DNA of 33,360 bases from Maribacter sp. Its GTDB lineage: Bacteria > Bacteroidota > Bacteroidia > Flavobacteriales > Flavobacteriaceae. Every line of letters starts with the position of its first letter. The first letter of the stretch is position 1. Both the position numbers and the translations under genes were made by a program. This document shows positions 6,193-13,327 of this stretch, piece after piece. Location of the stretch: assembly GCA_024228355.1 (NCBI GenBank), contig JAAETN010000080.1, positions 1 to 33,360 on the forward strand. Reading direction: 5' to 3'. A model generated the notes under the pieces. That model saw only the letters and a list, made by a program, of their open reading frames with translations, was not told the origin of the DNA and did not search any database.

Positions 6193-7644
6193 TTATTTTT
6201 TTGTAAATACGGCTTCCATTTCTTCCAATGTTTTGCCTTTGGTTTCAGGGATATATTTCCAAACGAACAAGATAATAATCACGATAAATCCTGAAAACAG
6301 AAAATAGGGCAGGGCATTATTCCATGTGCCACCATCCATAATCAGTCTATTGGTATCACTCTCAACAATTATAGGGAAAGTCTGTGATACAAAATAATTG
6401 GCCAACCATTGAGCTGCCACTGCGACTGCCATGGCCGCACTTCTAATTTTATTAGGAAAAATCTCAGATAACAACACCCAAACAATCGGACCCATTGACA
6501 TCGCGAATGCACCTATAAAGATCAAAACACCAATTAAGCTCAGTATACCTTCAAAAGTAGAAATTGTTGGTAATCCAGCTGAATTTATCTGTGAATAATC
6601 ACTGAAATATAAGGTGAAGCCCATTATTAAAAAACCTACCAACATTCCAAAGCCGCCAATAATCAATAACGGTTTTCTACCTAATTTATCGACGGTGAAC
6701 ATCGCTATAAAAGTAAATATCAAGTTGACAGTAGCAAGTAATATTTGCTGTAGAAGGATATCATCCTGTCCAAATCCAAGGGCTTGTTCAAAAATATCGG
6801 CTCCATAATAGAGTACGGCATTGATTCCTGTAAATTGCTGCAATATTGATAATATAGTACCAATGACGACAATGGGCAACATGGTCTTACTGAAAATAGA
6901 AACTTTTACCGCAGTACTTTCCGCTTTAATCGAGTTTCTAATTTCCTTGATTTCCTTGGTGGCTATTTCTTCGCCATGTATTCTTGTTAAAATGTTTTCA
7001 GCTTCTTCTTCTTTCCCTTTGATCATTAACCAACGTGGACTTTTAGGTACAAAAAACAATAGAATCAAAAACAACCCAGCAGGCACCATTTCTGACCAAA
7101 ACATGTTGCGCCATCCAAATGCAATGTTTTCACTTTCGCTCAGTTTGGCCCCAATGAAATAGGTAACCAAGAAAACGACAAAAAACCCGATAACAACTGC
7201 CAGTTGATAAAAGGTCACTAATATCCCCCTGTTCTTTGCAGGAGCTATCTCAGCAATGTACATTGGGGCGTTCATAGAGGCCATACCAATGGCAACACCC
7301 CCGATAAGTCTAAAAATGACCAATAATGTGGTCGATTCTGGTAGCATACTTGGCAGGCCGGAACCCCAAGCCGAGATCATAAAAAGCAACGCTGCAATGA
7401 TCAATGAGTTTTTTCTGCCAATGGCCTTGCTTATGATGCCAGCACAAGCAGCACCTACCAAAGCCCCTAAGAGGGCACTACTCACAATAAAACCTTTTAG
7501 TGCTCCCGTTAATTCGAAATATTTTGAAAAATAAAACTGGGTGCCGTTTATGACCCCAGTATCGTAACCAAACAACAACCCTCCCAGGGTAATGACAATG
7601 GTTATAAAATATATATTGATTTTTTTAGTCGAAGTTTTACCCAT
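6193..7644 (-). CDS. MFS sugar porter (sugar:H+ symporter, XylE/GLUT-like)
   Basis: This 483-residue protein has 12 predicted helices in the sugar-porter family of the major facilitator superfamily. It carries GGLLFGYDTGVINGT in TM1, the loop motif 'KAIGRKNS', RLIGGVAIGMAS in TM4, 'PKSPRWL' after TM6 (usually PESPRWL), QQFTGINAVLYYG in TM7, DKLGRKPLL, and PETKGKTLEEM after TM12. These motifs define proton-coupled or facilitative hexose/pentose transporters. The exact sugar cannot be called. It is transcribed alone, with its own terminator. No sugar-catabolism gene lies beside it here, so its pathway is not revealed by context. The QLS motif that marks glucose preference in some members is not evident. 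Confidence 0.93.
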   Translation of the reverse strand: MGKTSTKKINIYFITIVITLGGLLFGYDTGVINGTQFYFSKYFELTGALKGFIVSSALLGALVGAACAGIISKAIGRKNSLIIAALLFMISAWGSGLPSMLPESTTLLVIFRLIGGVAIGMASMNAPMYIAEIAPAKNRGILVTFYQLAVVIGFFVVFLVTYFIGAKLSESENIAFGWRNMFWSEMVPAGLFLILLFFVPKSPRWLMIKGKEEEAENILTRIHGEEIATKEIKEIRNSIKAESTAVKVSIFSKTMLPIVVIGTILSILQQFTGINAVLYYGADIFEQALGFGQDDILLQQILLATVNLIFTFIAMFTVDKLGRKPLLIIGGFGMLVGFLIMGFTLYFSDYSQINSAGLPTISTFEGILSLIGVLIFIGAFAMSMGPIVWVLLSEIFPNKIRSAAMAVAVAAQWLANYFVSQTFPIIVESDTNRLIMDGGTWNNALPYFLFSGFIVIIILFVWKYIPETKGKTLEEMEAVFTKK

Positions 7645-7915
7645 GGTCTCTTTGGTTTAAGGTTACTTAATTAGGATTCTTGATGGTCGTGTTTTGATTA
7701 AGCGTTAAACATTCAACTTAAGACATTGGACATTTATTGGTCAAAAGTATTGATAATAACAAAAATGCTTACTTTTTTTGATTAATTCTAATGCATTAAG
7801 ATCAAATTCAGATTAAATAATAAACGAACCAAATATACCTTTTTGTTCCGGAAATGCCCCTTTGGAATCTTTTAAATATTCAGCTTTTTTATATCGACTT
7901 GATTGGAAAACTGTT
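7645..7915. other. Intergenic region upstream of the sugar transporter
   Basis: These 271 bp hold no supported gene. On the minus strand two exact TAnnTTTG boxes occur, at 7742-7749 (TACTTTTG) and 7830-7837 (TATATTTG). Neither has a TTG at the expected 17-23 bp upstream. The first lies about 100 bp ahead of the transporter start and is the better candidate. No convincing terminator follows the msrA-like gene ending at 7916. Confidence 0.35.
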
Positions 7916-8371
7916 TCAACAGACTCTTAACTTTGGGTCAATGTGATTTTTGCAAAAAGGTTTTTCCGGATTATTATAATAATAGCTGGCAAACTGCTTT
8001 TCAGAAGGTTTAAAGTCAGCATACAATAGTACACGGACAATGAGATTATTATCATACTCTTTTTGTTTTGACTGTAGCATCCGTTTAACTTTATCACGTT
8101 GCACTTCCGAGAATACATAAATAGCCGAACGATATTTAGAACGCATCTGGTGATTGATTGTGCTCTTATGAGTTCTTAAATGAATTTCAACCAATAGATG
8201 TAACGGAATTATATCCTGGTTATAATGAACTATCACTGCTTCTGAGAACGCGCTATTTTCACCAGTAGATGCTATAAAACCTTGGTCTACCTTGCACACA
8301 CCAATCAAAGATTGAAATACCGCTTCGGTACACCAATGGCAACCACCTCCCAATCCGATTTTATTCATCAT
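7916..8371 (-). CDS. Divergent MsrA-like protein
   Basis: This 151-residue protein has the MsrA (peptide methionine-S-sulfoxide reductase) fold signature in altered form: GGGCHWCTEAVF in place of GCFWC, so the reactive C11 is kept but the following Phe is His. The Glu matching MsrA GHAE is kept (AFSEAV). The GTQYRS segment is KYRS, and the FYEAEDYHQ-like segment is FKPSEKQFASYY, which keeps the Glu but loses the Asp. A C-terminal 'FCKNHIDPKL' resembles the resolving-Cys region. ATG 8371 (or 8368) is chosen, because the longer form needs TTG. It overlaps the 90-residue gene by 11 nt. It may be an MsrA paralogue with a different substrate or reductant. A canonical msrA lies in the same cluster. 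Confidence 0.8.
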   Translation of the reverse strand: MMNKIGLGGGCHWCTEAVFQSLIGVCKVDQGFIASTGENSAFSEAVIVHYNQDIIPLHLLVEIHLRTHKSTINHQMRSKYRSAIYVFSEVQRDKVKRMLQSKQKEYDNNLIVRVLLYADFKPSEKQFASYYYNNPEKPFCKNHIDPKLRVC

Positions 8372-8633
8372 TCTTCTTTTTTTCAATTATAGATAGTTTC
8401 ATTATAAAATCAATAACTTTTCTCGCGGTCATTTCACAGGGTTTTAAGTTTTCCGATGTATTTGTGATGTAGTAATTCATACTTATTAAATCGTTGCCCC
8501 CTAATTCTTCGGCAAAGACCTTAATACTTCTTCCCCTATTGAAATCGGTTCTTGTAACACCATATTTTCTTTGGCGATAAAGTACTTCGGAGTAGCCTTT
8601 GGGGATTAACTTTATGTAGTCTAGCAAGCTCAC
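8361..8633 (-). CDS. Small protein of unknown function between selO and the msrA-like gene
   Basis: This 90-residue soluble protein starts at GTG 8633. The GTG shares its first base with the last base of the selO TAG stop (TAGTG), a classic termination-reinitiation arrangement. Recognisable stretches are IPKGYSEVLYRQRKYGVTR, 'RGRSIKVFAEELGGNDLIS' and 'LKPCEMTARKVIDFI', with one Cys in the last. There is no signal peptide or membrane helix. My impression is that similar small proteins accompany msrA-like genes with GCHWC in other bacteria, but I cannot verify this. It overlaps the downstream msrA-like gene, so the two are probably made in stoichiometric amounts. A partner or accessory role is inference. 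Confidence 0.8.
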   Translation of the reverse strand: MSLLDYIKLIPKGYSEVLYRQRKYGVTRTDFNRGRSIKVFAEELGGNDLISMNYYITNTSENLKPCEMTARKVIDFIMKLSIIEKKKNDE

Positions 8634-10195
8634 TATGAACTACATGAGAGCATGGAGCAACCCACTTTATGTCTAGCCCAATCAGGACGTTTGGCGAACC
8701 ATTTTTGATTTTCTGGTTGTTCAGCATAGGGTTTTTTAAGCATAATGAACAATTCGTCTATCAATTTATAATCTCCTTTATCTGCATCATCTATTGCTAA
8801 TTGCGCCATATAATTTCTCAATACATATTTTGGGTTTACTTGGTTCATTTTTTCTTTTCTCTCTTCCTCAGGTATTGATTCTTGAATTAATCTGGCATCA
8901 TAACCCCCAAACCATTCATTCCATTTGCCTTTCATCGCCTCAGTAACTTCAGATTCTGTGTAAAATGCGTCAGAGACAATTTTTAACCCCTCTAACGGTT
9001 TTCCGATTTTATAATTACTCAGATTTCGAAAGAATATGGTCATATCGGTTTCGGCCATTTGTAAGTTGTCCTCCAAATCTTTCACAAGTATCGAATCATC
9101 TTCCTCTGACTTTGAAAGTCCCAATTTTGAACGCATCATTTTTAGATATTGCATTGCGTATGAAATCCTATACGTTGCTAAGATAGTTTCCAGTTCTTTG
9201 GCTTCTTCAATTAAAGGGTAAATGGCATTTGCCAATTGATATAAATTCCATAATACAATATCCGGTTGACTACCAAATTTATAGCGTTTAAATTGGCTGT
9301 CGGTGGTGTTGGGCGTCCAGCCAAAATCATATCCTTCGAGCCAACCATAAGGTCCGTAATCTATAGTCAGACCTAGAATGGACATATTGTCGGTGTTCAT
9401 GACACCATGTACAAACCCTACGCGTTGCCAATCGATGACCATGGCCAAGCTTCGTTGAGACACTTCCTTAAAGAACTGTAAATAGATTTCCTTGGAAGGT
9501 TTCCCAAGATGTGGAAAGAAATGTTTTATGGTATAATTGGTTAACTTTTTAAGGTTGGGAGTATCTCCTCTTGCCGCAAAAATCTCAAAATTCCCAAAAC
9601 GAATAAATGATGGAGAGGTTCTACAAACAACTGCACCTTTTTCATATTCCGGATTACCGTCATACATAATATCGCGTAAAACTTGGTCTCCAGTTAAAGT
9701 TAATGACAATGCTCTAGTCGTTGGGATCCCCAGATGATACATAGCTTCACTACAGAGATATTCTCGAATAGAGGAACGCAGAACAGCTAAACCATCTGCT
9801 GTCCTTGAATAAGGCGTTTCTCCGGCTCCTTTTAATTGTAATGTCCAGCGTTCATTATTGTGTTCAACTTCGCATAAATTTATGGCACGACCATCGCCCA
9901 GTTGTCCAGCCCAATTGCCAAATTGATGACCACCATAGCACAAGGCATATGGTTTTGTAGTGGGTAAAACTTCATTTCCTGTAAAAACCTTTAAAAATGA
10001 TTCACTTTTACTATCAGAGACAGATAGGCCAATTTTTTTCAGCATTTCTGGGGATACATGAAGTATTGCAGGCTTTGTCGTTTTAATTGGTGTTACAAAG
10101 GAAAAACATGCTTCTTTTACCTGTCTTCTTGAGTTCTCCAAAATTGGGTCTGCTGGTAATTCTACATTGAATGTATCTTTTATATTCAGCTTCAT
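8633..10195 (-). CDS. selO: Protein adenylyltransferase SelO (YdiU/UPF0061)
   Basis: This 520-residue pseudokinase-fold enzyme transfers AMP, not phosphate, to Ser/Thr/Tyr of client proteins. E. coli SelO acts on redox and metabolic proteins, including a glutaredoxin. Motifs seen: CYGGHQFGNWAGQLGDGRA (86-104), LQLKGAGETPYSRT with K122, SSIREYLCSEAM, FVHGVMNTDN (261-270) and the DFG-like DYGP (279-282). The C-terminal CSS places Cys where animal SelO has selenocysteine. A second Cys lies six residues earlier (CSMLSCSS). ATG 10195 is preferred over the in-frame 10231 because GGAAGGATC precedes it at good spacing and homologous proteins begin near here. It lies 14 nt after the glutaredoxin-GNAT gene. 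Confidence 0.94.
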   Translation of the reverse strand: MKLNIKDTFNVELPADPILENSRRQVKEACFSFVTPIKTTKPAILHVSPEMLKKIGLSVSDSKSESFLKVFTGNEVLPTTKPYALCYGGHQFGNWAGQLGDGRAINLCEVEHNNERWTLQLKGAGETPYSRTADGLAVLRSSIREYLCSEAMYHLGIPTTRALSLTLTGDQVLRDIMYDGNPEYEKGAVVCRTSPSFIRFGNFEIFAARGDTPNLKKLTNYTIKHFFPHLGKPSKEIYLQFFKEVSQRSLAMVIDWQRVGFVHGVMNTDNMSILGLTIDYGPYGWLEGYDFGWTPNTTDSQFKRYKFGSQPDIVLWNLYQLANAIYPLIEEAKELETILATYRISYAMQYLKMMRSKLGLSKSEEDDSILVKDLEDNLQMAETDMTIFFRNLSNYKIGKPLEGLKIVSDAFYTESEVTEAMKGKWNEWFGGYDARLIQESIPEEERKEKMNQVNPKYVLRNYMAQLAIDDADKGDYKLIDELFIMLKKPYAEQPENQKWFAKRPDWARHKVGCSMLSCSS

Positions 10196-10209
10196 GAATG
10201 ATCCTTCCG

Positions 10210-10740
10210 TTATCCTATTATTGATTGCCACTTTTCACTACGTTTAGCAATAGCTTTAATAAAAGTGCAAACAGCTACTGCCTGAAAACCTTCTTTGGTT
10301 AATTTTTCAAAAGACTTTTCAACCAAAACCTTGCCAATACCTTGTCCCCTTAAATTATATGGGACTTCTGAATGCACCAAAAACATTTGACCATCTCTAA
10401 GGTTATATTCCACTTTTGCGTTTTCACCATTAATATCCAAAACGAATTGCTGACTATCAATATCGTGAATTAATTGCAGTCTGCTCGGAATTAGTTTATT
10501 TATCCATTTTATTAAATCATCTTTATCAGGGTTTCTCAACCTCTTTTTTCCAATGGTGATGGTAGGGAAATTGAGCTTATTGTTTATATAAAGACCTCGC
10601 AATTCTTCGGCATGGTCTTCATTGGTCTCCACATTCAAAAATTGATATGGCAAATTGGTCTCATCTAACAATAATTGATAATAACGGGTCTTATGACAGC
10701 CTGAGGCTCCATATAATTTTATTTTTGGGATGTCTTTCAT
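10210..10740 (-). CDS. Glutaredoxin-GNAT acetyltransferase fusion protein
   Basis: This 176-residue protein has two domains. Residues 5-82 resemble a glutaredoxin: IKLYGASGCHKTRYYQ, with a single active-site Cys (C15, CHKT rather than CPYC or CGFS), and the cis-Pro segment NFPTITIG. Residues 98-170 match small YidJ-type GNAT domains (COG2388): VEYNLRDGQMFLVHSEVP, then the acetyl-CoA loop RGQGIG, then VAVCTFIKAIAKR. The fusion suggests a thiol-redox step coupled to acetylation or to CoA/thiol binding, but no function can be read directly. Its start codon abuts the stop of the thioredoxin-like gene (TAGATG), and selO follows 14 nt later. A glutaredoxin next to an enzyme that AMPylates glutaredoxin is suggestive. 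Confidence 0.85.
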   Translation of the reverse strand: MKDIPKIKLYGASGCHKTRYYQLLLDETNLPYQFLNVETNEDHAEELRGLYINNKLNFPTITIGKKRLRNPDKDDLIKWINKLIPSRLQLIHDIDSQQFVLDINGENAKVEYNLRDGQMFLVHSEVPYNLRGQGIGKVLVEKSFEKLTKEGFQAVAVCTFIKAIAKRSEKWQSIIG

Positions 10741-11238
10741 CTATGCTATATTTTTTAGAAACGCTATGGCTTTATCAACGTTCAAATGGAAATCATTGAA
10801 GACTACATTGTTTTTTTGGTCGATGAAAATGAACCATGGGGTGCCACCCGTTCTATAAAACTGCATTACCCTTGACCGGTTGTGGGAATCATCATCGCCG
10901 GAATCATGACCAAAAGGAATTTTGAGGCTATACTTTTCTTGTATTTCAATTATTTTATCAAAAGTATTCTCATGAAAACCTTCGAATACCGTTTGTATAG
11001 CTAAAAAGGTAACCTTATCGTTGTTCTTTAGAGCTTTGGTCATTTCCTGTAAGGCCGGTAGTCCTCTGCTATGACAACCGGGACACCAACTTTGAAAGCA
11101 ATAAATTACCTTGAATTTGCCTTCAAAATCAGAAAGTTTTATAGGTTTAGTTGGATTTCCTTTGACATCAACCCATTTGTCAACTTCAAATTCATGGGCC
11201 TTAAACCCATCTACACCATATTTAGTATCGTTATTCAT
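10741..11238 (-). CDS. Cytoplasmic thioredoxin-like (TlpA/redoxin family) protein
   Basis: This 165-residue thioredoxin-fold protein has an active site WCPGCHSRG (C52, C55) and a cis-Pro motif GGTPWFIFID. There is no signal peptide, in contrast to most TlpA/ResA proteins, so it should act in the cytoplasm. An 'AKGxG'-type spacing region between beta strands carries 'HDSGDDDSHNRSRVMQF', an acidic loop. A clear AAGGAA site lies 8 nt ahead of ATG 11238. It lies after the msrB-msrA pair and before the glutaredoxin-GNAT gene with no gap. A reductant role for the Msr enzymes is a reasonable inference. Confidence 0.88.
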   Translation of the reverse strand: MNNDTKYGVDGFKAHEFEVDKWVDVKGNPTKPIKLSDFEGKFKVIYCFQSWCPGCHSRGLPALQEMTKALKNNDKVTFLAIQTVFEGFHENTFDKIIEIQEKYSLKIPFGHDSGDDDSHNRSRVMQFYRTGGTPWFIFIDQKNNVVFNDFHLNVDKAIAFLKNIA

Positions 11239-11274
11239 TTTATTTTCCTTTCTAAAATTTAATCAATAGTGTAA

Positions 11275-11299
11275 TTTGGGGAGTAAAAAACTCCCCAAA
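11275..11299 (-). other. Stem-loop between msrA and the thioredoxin-like gene
   Basis: Perfect 9-bp arms tttggggag (11275-11283) and ctccccaaa (11291-11299) flank a 7-nt loop. On the minus RNA the loop is U-rich (uuuuuua) but no U-tract follows the stem, so it is not a standard terminator. It lies 30 nt past the msrA stop. It may be an mRNA-stabilising or processing hairpin, or a weak terminator. Confidence 0.5.
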
Positions 11300-11329
11300 A
11301 ATTAGTTGCTTAAGTTTAATATTAATTAT

Positions 11330-11881
11330 TTAAGCCGATACCCCTTTTAATTTATCGGCATGCATTTTTCGAAGTTTAGCCAACTTAGGTGTAATCACAG
11401 CACTGCAATATCCTTGTGCGGTATTATTTTTATAATAATCTTGATGATAATCTTCCGCTTCATAAAAAGTGCCTAAAGGACTTATCTCGGTCACTATTGG
11501 ATCTTCATAATATGAGGCAACCTCCTTAGAAACAATCGTTGCAATCTCTTTTTGGGCATTATCATGATAATAGATTACTGAACGATATTGGGTTCCCGTA
11601 TCACCGCCTTGACGGTTTAAAGTGGTTGGATCATGACTGGTCATAAAGATGACCAACAAATCTTCATAGGAAATCACATTCTGATCAAAAGTTATTTGAA
11701 CAACTTCGGCATGACCAGTTAGGCCAGAGCAAACTTCCCTGTAGGTTGGTTTACCTGGGGCCGTACCACCGGTATATCCTGAAACAATTTTTTCAACACC
11801 TTTGATTTCGTTGAAAACAGCTTCAATACACCAAAAACAACCGCCACCTAGAGTGGCTATTTGTAATTTCTTATTACTCAT
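11330..11881 (-). CDS. msrA: Peptide methionine-S-sulfoxide reductase
   Basis: This 183-residue MsrA reduces the S epimer of methionine sulfoxide in proteins. It shows LGGGCFWCIEAVF with catalytic C15, GYTGGTAPGKPTYREVCSG, GHAEVVQITF, HDPTTLNRQGGDTGTQYRS, and FYEAEDYHQDYY. A C-terminal GYCSAVITPKL supplies the probable resolving Cys. The start at 11881 is chosen because its ATGAGTAA overlaps the msrB stop by 8 nt and leaves a normal N terminus. The in-frame start at 11908 would extend into msrB. No signal peptide is present, so the enzyme is cytoplasmic. It is translationally coupled to msrB. Confidence 0.97.
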   Translation of the reverse strand: MSNKKLQIATLGGGCFWCIEAVFNEIKGVEKIVSGYTGGTAPGKPTYREVCSGLTGHAEVVQITFDQNVISYEDLLVIFMTSHDPTTLNRQGGDTGTQYRSVIYYHDNAQKEIATIVSKEVASYYEDPIVTEISPLGTFYEAEDYHQDYYKNNTAQGYCSAVITPKLAKLRKMHADKLKGVSA

Positions 11882-12353
11882 TTCCAATCCTTTCTTTCTT
11901 GTCAGCAACGGCAGGTTCTAATTTCATTGACTCTGAATTAATACAATAGCGCAAACCACTCGGTTCTGGGCCATCAGGAAAAACATGTCCCAAATGGGCA
12001 TCACAGGTATTGCACATGACCTCTACTCTGACCATGCCAAAAGCAGTGTCTTTTTCATACTTAATAGCATTTTCCTTGACCGGTTGTGTAAAGCTAGGCC
12101 AGCCTGTTCCTGATTCAAATTTAATGGTCGAATCAAAAAGGGGTGTGTCACAGCAAATACAATTATATTTACCTGATTCATGAATACCACAAAGTGCACC
12201 AGAATGCGGTGCTTCAGTACCTTTGTTTCGAGTAACCCTAAATTGTTCAGGGCTTAAAATTACACGCCATTCGGCATCGGTTTTTTCAACCCTTTTATCA
12301 GGTTTTGGATTTCCTTTTACCGCAAAATTGATAACCTCTTTCCATGTTAGCAT
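11874..12353 (-). CDS. msrB: Peptide methionine-R-sulfoxide reductase
   Basis: This 159-residue MsrB reduces the R epimer of protein-bound methionine sulfoxide. Structural zinc ligands are visible as C65/C68 (NCICCDTPLF, with an extra Cys at 67) and C114/C117 (MCNTCDAHLGHVF). The catalytic Cys is C137 in RYCINSESM, and GTGWPSF holds the family substrate-pocket segment. It is the first gene of the cluster. The promoter should lie in the 161-bp divergent region 12354-12514 shared with the nuclease gene, but I see no exact TAnnTTTG box there. Its end overlaps msrA by 8 nt. Confidence 0.97.
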   Translation of the reverse strand: MLTWKEVINFAVKGNPKPDKRVEKTDAEWRVILSPEQFRVTRNKGTEAPHSGALCGIHESGKYNCICCDTPLFDSTIKFESGTGWPSFTQPVKENAIKYEKDTAFGMVRVEVMCNTCDAHLGHVFPDGPEPSGLRYCINSESMKLEPAVADKKERIGNE

Positions 12354-12514
12354 GGTTTGTTTCCTCTCTTTTTTAAACGATTATTGGATTTTTAATATTC
12401 AAATTACTCCTTAAAGCCAGTAATTTTTGAAGTCATTATCTTTGTCTCCAAAATAACCTAAACCTTACAAAAACCGTTATCGTTACAACTACTAATTTAA
12501 ACTAAATTTAACCG

Positions 12515-13327
12515 ATGAACCAAAGTAAAAAGAATAGAACAATGTATACTGTTTTACTTTTGCTTTGTATAGTAGTTTTTTGGTTATTTGAGAATTTTTA
12601 CACCCCGGATACATATTCCACTGTTGAAGATGATGGACTTAAAACTGATATCCCATCCTATTTTTTGCCAAGTACTTCTACAGGGGCAATTGTAGTGCAT
12701 GACCATTTTATGTTGTCTTATAATGAACCTTATGAACAGGCCGAATGGGTTGCGTATTTACTTACAAAAAACCATTTGACCTATGATGATCGTAGACGCC
12801 CTTATTTTATAGAGGACCCCAAAGTAAAAACCAAATCCGCCGATTGGCGAAACTATAAGGGTTCTGGTTATGATCGTGGTCATTTATGCCCAGCTGGAGA
12901 TCGTCGTTTTTCAGAATTTGCCTATAATGAAACTTTCTATACCAGTAACATTAGTCCTCAAAATAGGGAGTTCAATGCAGGGATTTGGAATCGTTTGGAA
13001 ATGCAGATTCGACAATGGGTGAAAAAGTATGGTGACCTTTTCGTGGTTACAGGAGGAGTTCTGGAAGACGGACTTGTTGAAATTGGGGAGGAAGATGTTG
13101 ATGTACCCAAGTATTATTACAAAATAGTTGCAAAGGGTAATGCCGATGATTTAAGAGTAATCGCTTTTTTGATGCCTAATTACGAAAATACCGATCCATT
13201 ACATCATTTCGTTGTACCGGTTGATAAAATTGAAAAAGTTACAGGCTTGGATTTTTTTCAGGAGCTTCCTGATATTACAGAAACCAAATTGGAAAGCCAA
13301 TCAACTTTAGCAGGGTGGAAATTCTAA
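12515..13327 (+). CDS. Membrane-anchored DNA/RNA non-specific endonuclease
   Basis: This 270-residue protein has an N-terminal membrane anchor or uncleaved signal (about residues 9-27, MYTVLLLLCIVVFWLF). A beta-beta-alpha-metal nuclease domain of the NUC1/EndA type follows. The active site DRGHLCPAGDRR is at 120-131 with general base H123, and metal-ligand segment SPQN...NAGIWNRLE is at 148-162 (N159). Such enzymes cleave single- and double-stranded nucleic acid, usually outside the cytoplasm for nutrient scavenging or DNA uptake. The role here is not shown. It diverges from msrB, and its TAA stop overlaps the rodA stop by 4 nt in a convergent arrangement with no terminator between. Confidence 0.92.
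   Translation: MNQSKKNRTMYTVLLLLCIVVFWLFENFYTPDTYSTVEDDGLKTDIPSYFLPSTSTGAIVVHDHFMLSYNEPYEQAEWVAYLLTKNHLTYDDRRRPYFIEDPKVKTKSADWRNYKGSGYDRGHLCPAGDRRFSEFAYNETFYTSNISPQNREFNAGIWNRLEMQIRQWVKKYGDLFVVTGGVLEDGLVEIGEEDVDVPKYYYKIVAKGNADDLRVIAFLMPNYENTDPLHHFVVPVDKIEKVTGLDFFQELPDITETKLESQSTLAGWKF

What the first reader, a model, noticed from the sequence alone, without database searches (positions are those of the whole stretch)
7916..12353. Redox-repair cluster centred on SelO, with a glutaredoxin next door
Seven minus-strand genes are packed with overlaps or near-zero gaps: msrB, msrA, a thioredoxin-like protein, a glutaredoxin-GNAT fusion, selO, a 90-residue protein and an MsrA-like protein. E. coli SelO is known to AMPylate redox proteins including a glutaredoxin and to affect protein S-glutathionylation. 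A glutaredoxin domain encoded 14 nt before selO, together with the repair reductases, suggests a unit in which SelO switches thiol and methionine repair by AMPylation. The functional link is inference.
Basis: partly seen in the sequence, partly recalled or inferred. Interest (0 to 1): 0.72.

Follow-up and report, generated by a model that had tools for sequence, protein, structure and literature searches.

The report
Methionine-repair gene cluster with SelO aboard
A marine bacterium keeps a set of protein-repair genes together, and the modifying enzyme SelO often sits in the set, but some relatives keep the same set without SelO, so repair rather than SelO seems to be its core.

Summary
The seven genes are there as described, except for a 91-base gap with a hairpin after msrA. 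The neighbourhood is conserved: of 63 other SelO loci in the family, 44 have an Msr-family gene close by on the same strand. Msr genes near SelO were reported in 2012 (PMC3281104).

The SelO-centred switch fares worse. Five sampled genomes without detected SelO keep msrB, msrA, Trx and Grx in that order, four with the odd MsrA as well. The residue SelO modifies in E. coli glutaredoxin, Tyr13, reads as Lys in all 40 relatives counted, SelO-linked or not. The genome has BshC and neither GshA type sought, so bacillithiol is the likelier small thiol.

Best reading: a methionine-sulfoxide repair operon with its own thiol reductants, which SelO often joins. Apparently undescribed: a distinct MsrA-like subfamily, a monothiol CHK[T/S] glutaredoxin fused to a small acetyltransferase where both occur, a widespread 90-residue partner, and related islands on proteobacterial plasmids, one of those opened holding SelO.

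The parts
11874..12353 (-). msrB (159 aa), methionine-R-sulfoxide reductase
   Evidence: TIGR00357 184.7 bits, SelR 166.6 bits
11330..11881 (-). msrA (183 aa from ATG 11881, my choice of start; overlaps msrB by 8 nt), methionine-S-sulfoxide reductase, canonical GCFWC / QGxDxGTQYRS motifs
   Evidence: TIGR00401 198 bits; motif table
11239..11329 (-). msrA-Trx gap with a 10-bp hairpin, no U-run; hairpin also in L073 and L140 with altered stem bases
   Evidence: fold -17.6 kcal/mol, z -3.46; relatives
10741..11238 (-). TlpA/redoxin-like thioredoxin-fold protein (165 aa, CPGC); no signal peptide seen by eye (not run through a predictor)
   Evidence: AhpC-TSA 39.2 bits, Redoxin 38.5 bits
10210..10740 (-). 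monothiol glutaredoxin (CHKT) fused to a small GNAT of the Acetyltransf_CG type (176 aa)
8633..10195 (-). selO (520 aa), protein adenylyltransferase; LKGAG, NTDN, DYG motifs and C-terminal Cys present; no Cys in the activation loop
   Evidence: PF02696 423 bits; aligned to PDB 6eac; motifs
8361..8633 (-). P90: 90-aa protein, invariant PCEM, predicted alpha/beta fold
   Evidence: no Pfam/NCBIfam; alignment A5 of 20; AF2 pLDDT 91.7
7916..8368 (-). MsrAL: diverged MsrA subfamily (GGGCHWCTEA; SEA for HAE; HxxRxKYRS for QGxDxGTQYRS)

Best explanation
This is a methionine-sulfoxide repair operon with its own thiol reductants, which SelO has joined. (SelO is in 64 of 199 sampled family genomes, and 44 of the 63 besides the window have it by an Msr gene.) MsrB and MsrA reduce the two sulfoxide forms of oxidised methionine in proteins; the Trx-like protein and the monothiol glutaredoxin pass electrons to the Msr enzymes and to MsrAL, a diverged MsrA that keeps the catalytic Cys but has a changed substrate pocket. 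The GNAT domain and P90 are accessory parts of unknown chemistry. SelO is an active-looking AMPylase co-expressed under the same stress, acting on its own targets rather than as the switch of the unit. Shown: genes, motifs, fusion, conservation of the order with and without SelO. Inferred: co-transcription, electron flow, enzyme activities, and SelO's role.
For: Same order without SelO: msrB-msrA-Trx-Grx-MsrAL-OsmC in L101, L102, L103; msrB-msrA-Trx-Grx-AKR in L104; msrB-msrA-(a 470-aa gene)-Trx-[Grx+GNAT]-P90-AKR-MsrAL in L100; no SelO match in these five genomes, which are listed as 90-99% complete. L110 has msrB-msrA-Trx-GNAT-P90-MsrAL while that genome's SelO lies on another contig. In 199 genomes MsrAL-Grx co-occur in 13 (4.6 expected) and MsrAL-P90 in 17 (6.0), against SelO-Grx 11 (5.1) and SelO-P90 13 (6.8) (relatedness not corrected). 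Plasmids of Citrobacter, Acinetobacter, Leclercia and Shewanella place a CHKT Grx beside msrB with no SelO annotated or matched in the stretch. Precedent: Grx reduces Clostridium MsrA and a monothiol mutant forms the Grx-MsrA complex (passages of PMC4479559); PDB 7c13 is listed under both MsrA and Grx. SelO motifs intact.
Against: SelO is retained in this slot across many genera (45 of 64 family SelO genes, window included, have an Msr-family gene within 2.5 kb on the same strand), which suggests a real functional tie. A similar order with SelO stands on a Phaeobacter plasmid. All 11 SelO-bearing genomes with a strong Grx hit have the Grx immediately upstream of SelO. The 'module' is loose: MsrAL stands with none of the other sought genes in 23 of the 40 loci and in 10 of the 80. 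No expression or biochemical data. MsrAL lacks the Asp of canonical MsrA, so it may not be an Msr at all.
Confidence: 0.66

Rival explanations
1. One reading: SelO switches the unit by AMPylating the neighbouring glutaredoxin (and perhaps the Msr enzymes), slowing de-thiolation under oxidative stress.
For: E. coli SelO AMPylates GrxA and RNase Z removes the AMP (PMC12663964 passages); Grx or GNAT stands immediately upstream of selO in many loci; a hydroxyl (T or S) is invariant one residue after the lost Tyr position.
Against: Tyr13 of GrxA, the known site, reads as Lys in all 40 Grx counted; T/S at the next residue is invariant with and without SelO, so SelO does not explain it. Grx-Msr clusters exist without SelO. 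No GshA of the two types sought.
Confidence: 0.15
2. A hypohalous-acid (HOCl/HOBr) resistance island, partly shared between marine Flavobacteriaceae and proteobacterial plasmids, in which SelO, Msr enzymes and thiol reductants are among several payloads. This is about the trigger and does not exclude the best explanation.
For: Plasmid relatives carry AraC or LysR regulators; a DUF417 gene is annotated in three stretches (confirmed by Pfam for the Leclercia one), in two of them beside msrB-msrA-MsrAL; DUF417 proteins RclC/RcrB act in HOCl resistance (PMC9600549 passages). MsrAL of the Phaeobacter plasmid is 58% identical to the window's, within the 52-62% seen between Flavobacteriaceae genera. 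OsmC-type and aldo/keto-reductase neighbours recur.
Against: None of the 120 Bacteroidota loci scanned holds a DUF417 or an RclA-like relative by phmmer at E 1e-4 (L035-L139 were not scanned for these two). The main text of a Zobellia RNA-seq paper on fresh algae does not hold the terms sulfoxide, msrA or msrB (term search). The Phaeobacter SelO is only distantly related, on a long branch, so wholesale transfer of the unit is not shown.
Confidence: 0.3
3. The genes are neighbours by inheritance only; the order has been kept without functional linkage.
For: SelO genes with Msr neighbours cluster on the tree (14 changes against 34.9 in shuffles), as common descent alone would give.
Against: Repeated loss, gain and re-ordering of members, fusions of GNAT to Grx or MsrA and of a Grx to P90, and similar groupings on proteobacterial plasmids.
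Confidence: 0.05

Closest known systems
SelO/YdiU neighbourhoods of Dudkiewicz et al. 2012 (PMC3281104; section 10 read, and passages)
   Same: msrB (corrected P 5.9e-10), msrA and GST (uncorrected only) near SelO; oxidative-stress context
   Different: Based on 22-kb windows and COGs in 265 genomes; nothing in what I read on MsrAL, CHK[T/S] Grx, the Grx-GNAT fusion or P90
E. coli SelO - GrxA - RNase Z AMPylation circuit (PMC12663964 passages)
   Same: SelO family with kinase-like motifs; a glutaredoxin at hand
   Different: E. coli grxA is not beside selO; GrxA is CPYC with Tyr13; E. coli SelO has Cys272 in the loop, the window's SelO has none; the host lacks the GshA types sought
Clostridium oremlandii MsrA-glutaredoxin pair (PMC4479559 passages; PDB 7c13)
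   Same: A Grx serves an MsrA through a mixed disulfide; a monothiol Grx mutant is competent
   Different: Selenoproteins, 1-Cys MsrA with an extra helical domain; no SelO in the passages seen
RclABC / RcrARB hypochlorous-acid systems (PMC9600549 passages)
   Same: DUF417 and redox genes near Msr genes on some plasmid relatives
   Different: No DUF417 or RclA-like gene found in the 120 Bacteroidota loci scanned

Membership tests
SelO protein adenylyltransferase | PF02696 over cut-off across nearly the whole domain | tested here: met
   423 bits, profile 16-464/466; 560 bits to NF000658 YdiU family (cut-off 431) but 425.5 and 392.1 against the SelO equivalog cut-offs of 850 and 900
SelO protein adenylyltransferase | kinase-like active-site motifs (LKGAG Lys, NTDN, DYG; roles recalled) | tested here: met
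SelO protein adenylyltransferase | redox Cys pair as in E. coli (Cys272 in the loop, Cys476 at the C-end; pairing recalled) | tested here: not met
   loop reads TPNTTD, no Cys; C-terminal Cys513 and Cys518 present. This bears on regulation, not on family membership
SelO protein adenylyltransferase | AMP transfer to protein | not testable with these tools
   none
MsrA (TIGR00401), for MsrAL | score over the curated cut-off | tested here: not met
   58.9 against 108.1 bits, although PF01625 is met at 73.3 bits
MsrA (TIGR00401), for MsrAL | catalytic Cys, acidic residue of the HAE motif and Tyr of QYRS kept (roles recalled) | tested here: met
   C10, E43, Y79 invariant in 19
MsrA (TIGR00401), for MsrAL | GCFW pocket and Asp of QGxDxGxQYRS (roles recalled) | tested here: not met
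   GC[HY]W and HxxRxKYRS instead
Glutaredoxin (PF00462) | score over cut-off | tested here: inconclusive
   21.7 against 22.9 bits, E 2.3e-4; profile A2 finds PDB glutaredoxin 5cax at E 8e-5
Glutaredoxin (PF00462) | CxxC dithiol active site (monothiol members are also known, recalled) | tested here: not met
   CHK[TS] in 39 of 40, CRKT in one
Acetyltransf_CG / NATD1-type GNAT | PF14542 over cut-off | tested here: met
   62.8 against 30 bits
reactive-chlorine resistance island | RclR/RcrR regulon genes (DUF417, RclA) | tested here: not met
   none in 120 Bacteroidota loci and none among the seven genes of the window; DUF417 in three plasmid stretches

The most novel reading that the evidence does not exclude
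A partly mobile, cross-phylum sulfoxide-repair module in which MsrAL is a reductase for a substrate that normal MsrA does not take, the CHK[T/S] glutaredoxin (fused to an acetyltransferase where both occur) is its dedicated monothiol reductant in bacillithiol-using cells, P90 is a further redox partner, and SelO tunes the unit, possibly by AMPylating the Thr/Ser that replaces the second active-site Cys.
Probability: 0.15. Interest if true: 0.78.

Novelty: new variant of a known kind. Interest (0 to 1): 0.5.

Why it matters
SelO's bacterial targets are poorly mapped. Here evolution has put it beside a small, testable set of redox proteins in dozens of genera, and relatives without SelO give natural controls. 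If MsrAL and the CHK[T/S] glutaredoxin work as inferred, they extend sulfoxide repair beyond the known MsrA/MsrB reactions and give a Grx-type reductant for cells that probably use bacillithiol. It also corrects the neighbourhood inference: the steadier core is repair, and SelO is an optional part.

Tried and rejected
SelO as the organiser of the cluster: rejected as the best reading after SelO-less clusters in the same order were found.

Cluster as a Bacteroidota-wide SelO unit: rejected; of 30 SelO loci outside the family only L243 has Msr genes nearby (queries were mostly the window's proteins at E 1e-4; some contigs are short, and L260 was too short for the tree).

P90 fold: the AF2 model is confident but Foldseek in PDB gives nothing at E <= 0.001; best are Ivy lysozyme-inhibitor chains at E 0.31 and above, TM (query) 0.52-0.59. 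Sequence search of PDB gives only one match, E 0.42. Function left open.

Bacteroidetes-type promoter (TTG/TTT N17-24 TAnnTTTG, consensus recalled): none on the minus strand of 7600-12800; sigma-70-like hits 24 against 19.7 expected, uninformative; terminator-like hits 12 against 3.2 expected, but none at the msrA-Trx hairpin and those on the minus strand lie inside genes. Rfam: no match in the window.

Glutathione route: GshA types PF04262 and PF04107 not found, but a GshB-like PF02955 match of 184 bits exists, and GshF was not sought by a model of its own; so glutathione is unlikely, not excluded.

GrxA alignment: MAFFT put a gap after the active-site Cys; the Tyr13-Lys17 match rests on my ungapped reading of the shared G-x-S-G-C stretch.

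Rows dropped before counts: 45 of 102 genomes whose best match is under 130 bits (one, G006, is a broken MsrAL remnant) not counted as MsrAL, 18 of 34 places between 37 and 82 bits (among them broken remnants in G006 and G188, and other glutaredoxins) not counted as Grx, only Grx over 75 bits in frames under 220 aa plus the ten named L035-L097 frames, so L189 (CSKT) and L187 (no motif in the fragment) are outside the 40, as are the plasmid sequences.
Full report
What is there. The window holds seven minus-strand genes at 7916-12353 in the order msrB, msrA, Trx-like, Grx-GNAT, selO, P90, MsrAL, with gaps of -8, 91, 0, 14, -1 and -8 nt. The one real gap, between msrA and the Trx gene, holds a 10-bp hairpin that is also seen in a same-genus genome (L073) and a Maribacter MAG (L140) with changed stem bases. 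By eye the gap is short and without such a hairpin in L036, L056, L058, L060, L102 and L103, while L110 has a different inverted repeat there. Whether all seven genes share one transcript is open.

Host. The closest named record found is L140, 'Maribacter sp. isolate SS_bin_62', which has msrA-Trx-[Grx+GNAT]-selO-P90-MsrAL followed by a relative of the window's sugar transporter. The host is therefore probably a Maribacter-like member of Flavobacteriaceae (inference).

Conservation. SelO (PF02696) is in 64 of 199 genomes drawn from the family. I fetched all 63 other neighbourhoods. Of these 63, 44 have an Msr-family gene on the same strand within 3.5 kb, 38 MsrB, 35 canonical MsrA, 34 both, 19 MsrAL, 8 a further MsrA type (GCFWGME), 10 Trx, 10 Grx, 5 P90 and 2 GNAT (contig ends count as misses). 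Nineteen have none of the Msr types. In a quick SelO tree 45 of 64 family genes, window included, are Msr-linked within 2.5 kb, and 42 of 51 rows in the starred set that holds the window. Outside the family the link nearly vanishes: 1 of 30 loci (L243); of 10 additional same-family loci, 5 are linked. Those are all 30 outside-family genomes over the cut-off and 10 of the 20 new same-family ones.

The unit without SelO. I searched 199 family genomes with profiles of MsrAL, Grx and P90. MsrAL is in 57 (over 200 bits, next match at 128), Grx in 16 (over 100 bits), P90 in 21. Of the 16 Grx genomes 11 have SelO and 5 do not; MsrAL is in 13 of the 16. The five without SelO keep msrB, msrA, Trx and Grx in the same order (a 470-aa gene lies between msrA and Trx in L100); in L101, L102 and L103 MsrAL and an OsmC-type hydrolase follow directly; L100 has the Grx+GNAT fusion, P90 and MsrAL. 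In L110 the cluster stands alone while that genome's SelO is on another contig. Fisher tests give MsrAL-P90 2e-7, MsrAL-Grx 8e-6, SelO-MsrAL 2e-4, SelO-Grx 0.0035, SelO-P90 0.005; relatedness is not corrected, so only the ranking should be used. Among 80 named MsrAL loci from the genome collection (the best 80 of 579), 46 have SelO in the stretch, 51 MsrB, up to 31 Grx (weak matches included), 20 P90, 43 the OsmC-type gene and 33 an aldo/keto reductase. In two Tenacibaculum loci (L174, L216) SelO follows the OsmC gene instead of preceding MsrAL. L183 is a Saprospiraceae MAG with msrB-msrA-Trx-GNAT-selO-MsrAL-OsmC. Against a tight module: MsrAL stands with none of the other sought genes in 23 of the 40 loci and in 10 of the 80.

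The Grx and GNAT. The glutaredoxin is a monothiol type: the motif is CHKT or CHKS in 39 of 40 distinct sequences and CRKT in one. GNAT occurs alone in the slot before selO (L043, L183, L195, L209, L212), alone in clusters without SelO in the stretch (L110, L197), fused to the end of MsrA (L051), or fused to Grx (window, L140, L159, L100 and the Phaeobacter plasmid). In the five places where I saw both the CHK[T/S] Grx and GNAT they were fused; I saw none with both as separate genes. L107 has a second Grx-like domain fused to P90.

Against the proposed switch. Two reviews state that SelO modifies Tyr13 of E. coli GrxA in the active site (passages). In the window the ungapped match of the shared G-x-S-G-C stretch puts Lys17 there, and Lys is at that position in all 40 sequences counted, 27 from stretches with SelO and 13 without. 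The Thr or Ser that follows is invariant in both sets. The E. coli logic rests on protein-glutathione disulfides; this genome has no PF04262 or PF04107 GshA match, has BshC (460 bits), and has a GshB-like gene. The window's SelO keeps LKGAG, NTDN, DYG and the C-terminal Cys but has no Cys at E. coli Cys272; the same holds for all 92 rows (of 104) in which the loop motif was found.

MsrAL. It is a distinct subfamily by motif: GGGC[HY]WC[TL]EA, SEA in place of HAE, HxxRxKYRS in place of QGxDxGxQYRS, PFC near the C-end. It keeps the nucleophile, the acidic residue and the Tyr, and falls below the MsrA equivalog cut-off. No tree of it was built. The own genome holds four PMSR genes, two of them here.

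Relatives on plasmids. tblastn finds P90 in 185, Grx in 48 and MsrAL in 23 plasmid records, proteobacterial in all rows and names shown. I opened twelve stretches. A Phaeobacter gallaeciensis plasmid has LysR, msrB, msrA, redoxin, selO, a pyridine-nucleotide reductase, a Grx-GNAT fusion, a carboxymuconolactone decarboxylase, an antiporter, an unknown gene and MsrAL. Shewanella and Leclercia plasmids have msrA-grx-msrB-CHKT Grx-PMSR and DUF417-msrB-msrA-MsrAL blocks; Acinetobacter has msrA-grx-msrB-CHKT Grx (an IS element between the first two) and DUF417 further on; Citrobacter has msrB-CHKT Grx and, further on, Grx-DUF427-P90; Klebsiella has Grx-DUF427-P90 with msrA-msrB some 5 kb on; Comamonadaceae and Sphingomonas have DUF427, P90 and MsrAL grouped; Sinorhizobium has P90 with DUF427 and an msrA 4-5 kb away. 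A Paracoccus stretch is not annotated and shows only an MsrB match at its edge, and two Rhizobium stretches have P90 with no Msr gene, so P90 is not tied to Msr everywhere. SelO matched in the Phaeobacter stretch alone. DUF417 is the RclC/RcrB family of hypochlorous-acid resistance (PMC9600549 passages).

How it most likely works. Msr enzymes repair oxidised methionine; the Trx-like protein and the monothiol Grx supply thiols. This is inferred from proximity and from the Clostridium pair, where Grx but not Trx reduces MsrA and a monothiol Grx mutant forms the mixed disulfide (PMC4479559 passages). SelO is probably a co-regulated stress enzyme with its own substrates. A hypohalite trigger is plausible for algae-associated bacteria, but DUF417 and RclA-like genes are absent from the 120 Bacteroidota loci scanned for them, and a Zobellia paper's main text has no msr term.

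What is known. Msr genes near SelO were reported in 2012 (PMC3281104, section 10 read), and a 2023 neighbourhood tool used SelO as an example (PMC10364804 passages). My searches of the open library (listings) showed no account of the Grx-GNAT fusion, MsrAL or P90 with SelO; subscription papers are not covered, and supplementary files were not read.

Noticed in passing
window 11239-11329 (-): A hairpin between msrA and the Trx gene is kept in L073 and L140 with different stem bases but no U-run; L110 has another inverted repeat there. It may be a processing or attenuation element.
   Followed up: partly
window 12515-13327 (+): A DNA/RNA non-specific endonuclease gene stands divergently before msrB; the same pairing is seen in L073, L110, L123, L137, L145, L149, L153, L157 and L162.
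   Followed up: no
L107 (G051:C9): A Grx-like domain fused to P90 in one 173-aa frame, apart from that genome's SelO locus.
   Followed up: no
L226, L227 (Shewanella and Leclercia plasmids): Dense Msr islands with four PMSR genes plus a short one, two MsrB, two glutaredoxins, DUF417 and an AraC regulator; near mer genes in L226.
   Followed up: partly
L105 (G006): A cluster in which Grx, MsrAL and the OsmC-type gene appear only as fragments while msrB, msrA and Trx look whole, as if they decayed together; no SelO match in that genome.
   Followed up: no
L142, L143, L182, L191: Longer Msr neighbourhoods with the GCFWGME-type MsrA and DUF427, three of them also with an aldo/keto reductase and a carboxymuconolactone decarboxylase.
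   Followed up: no
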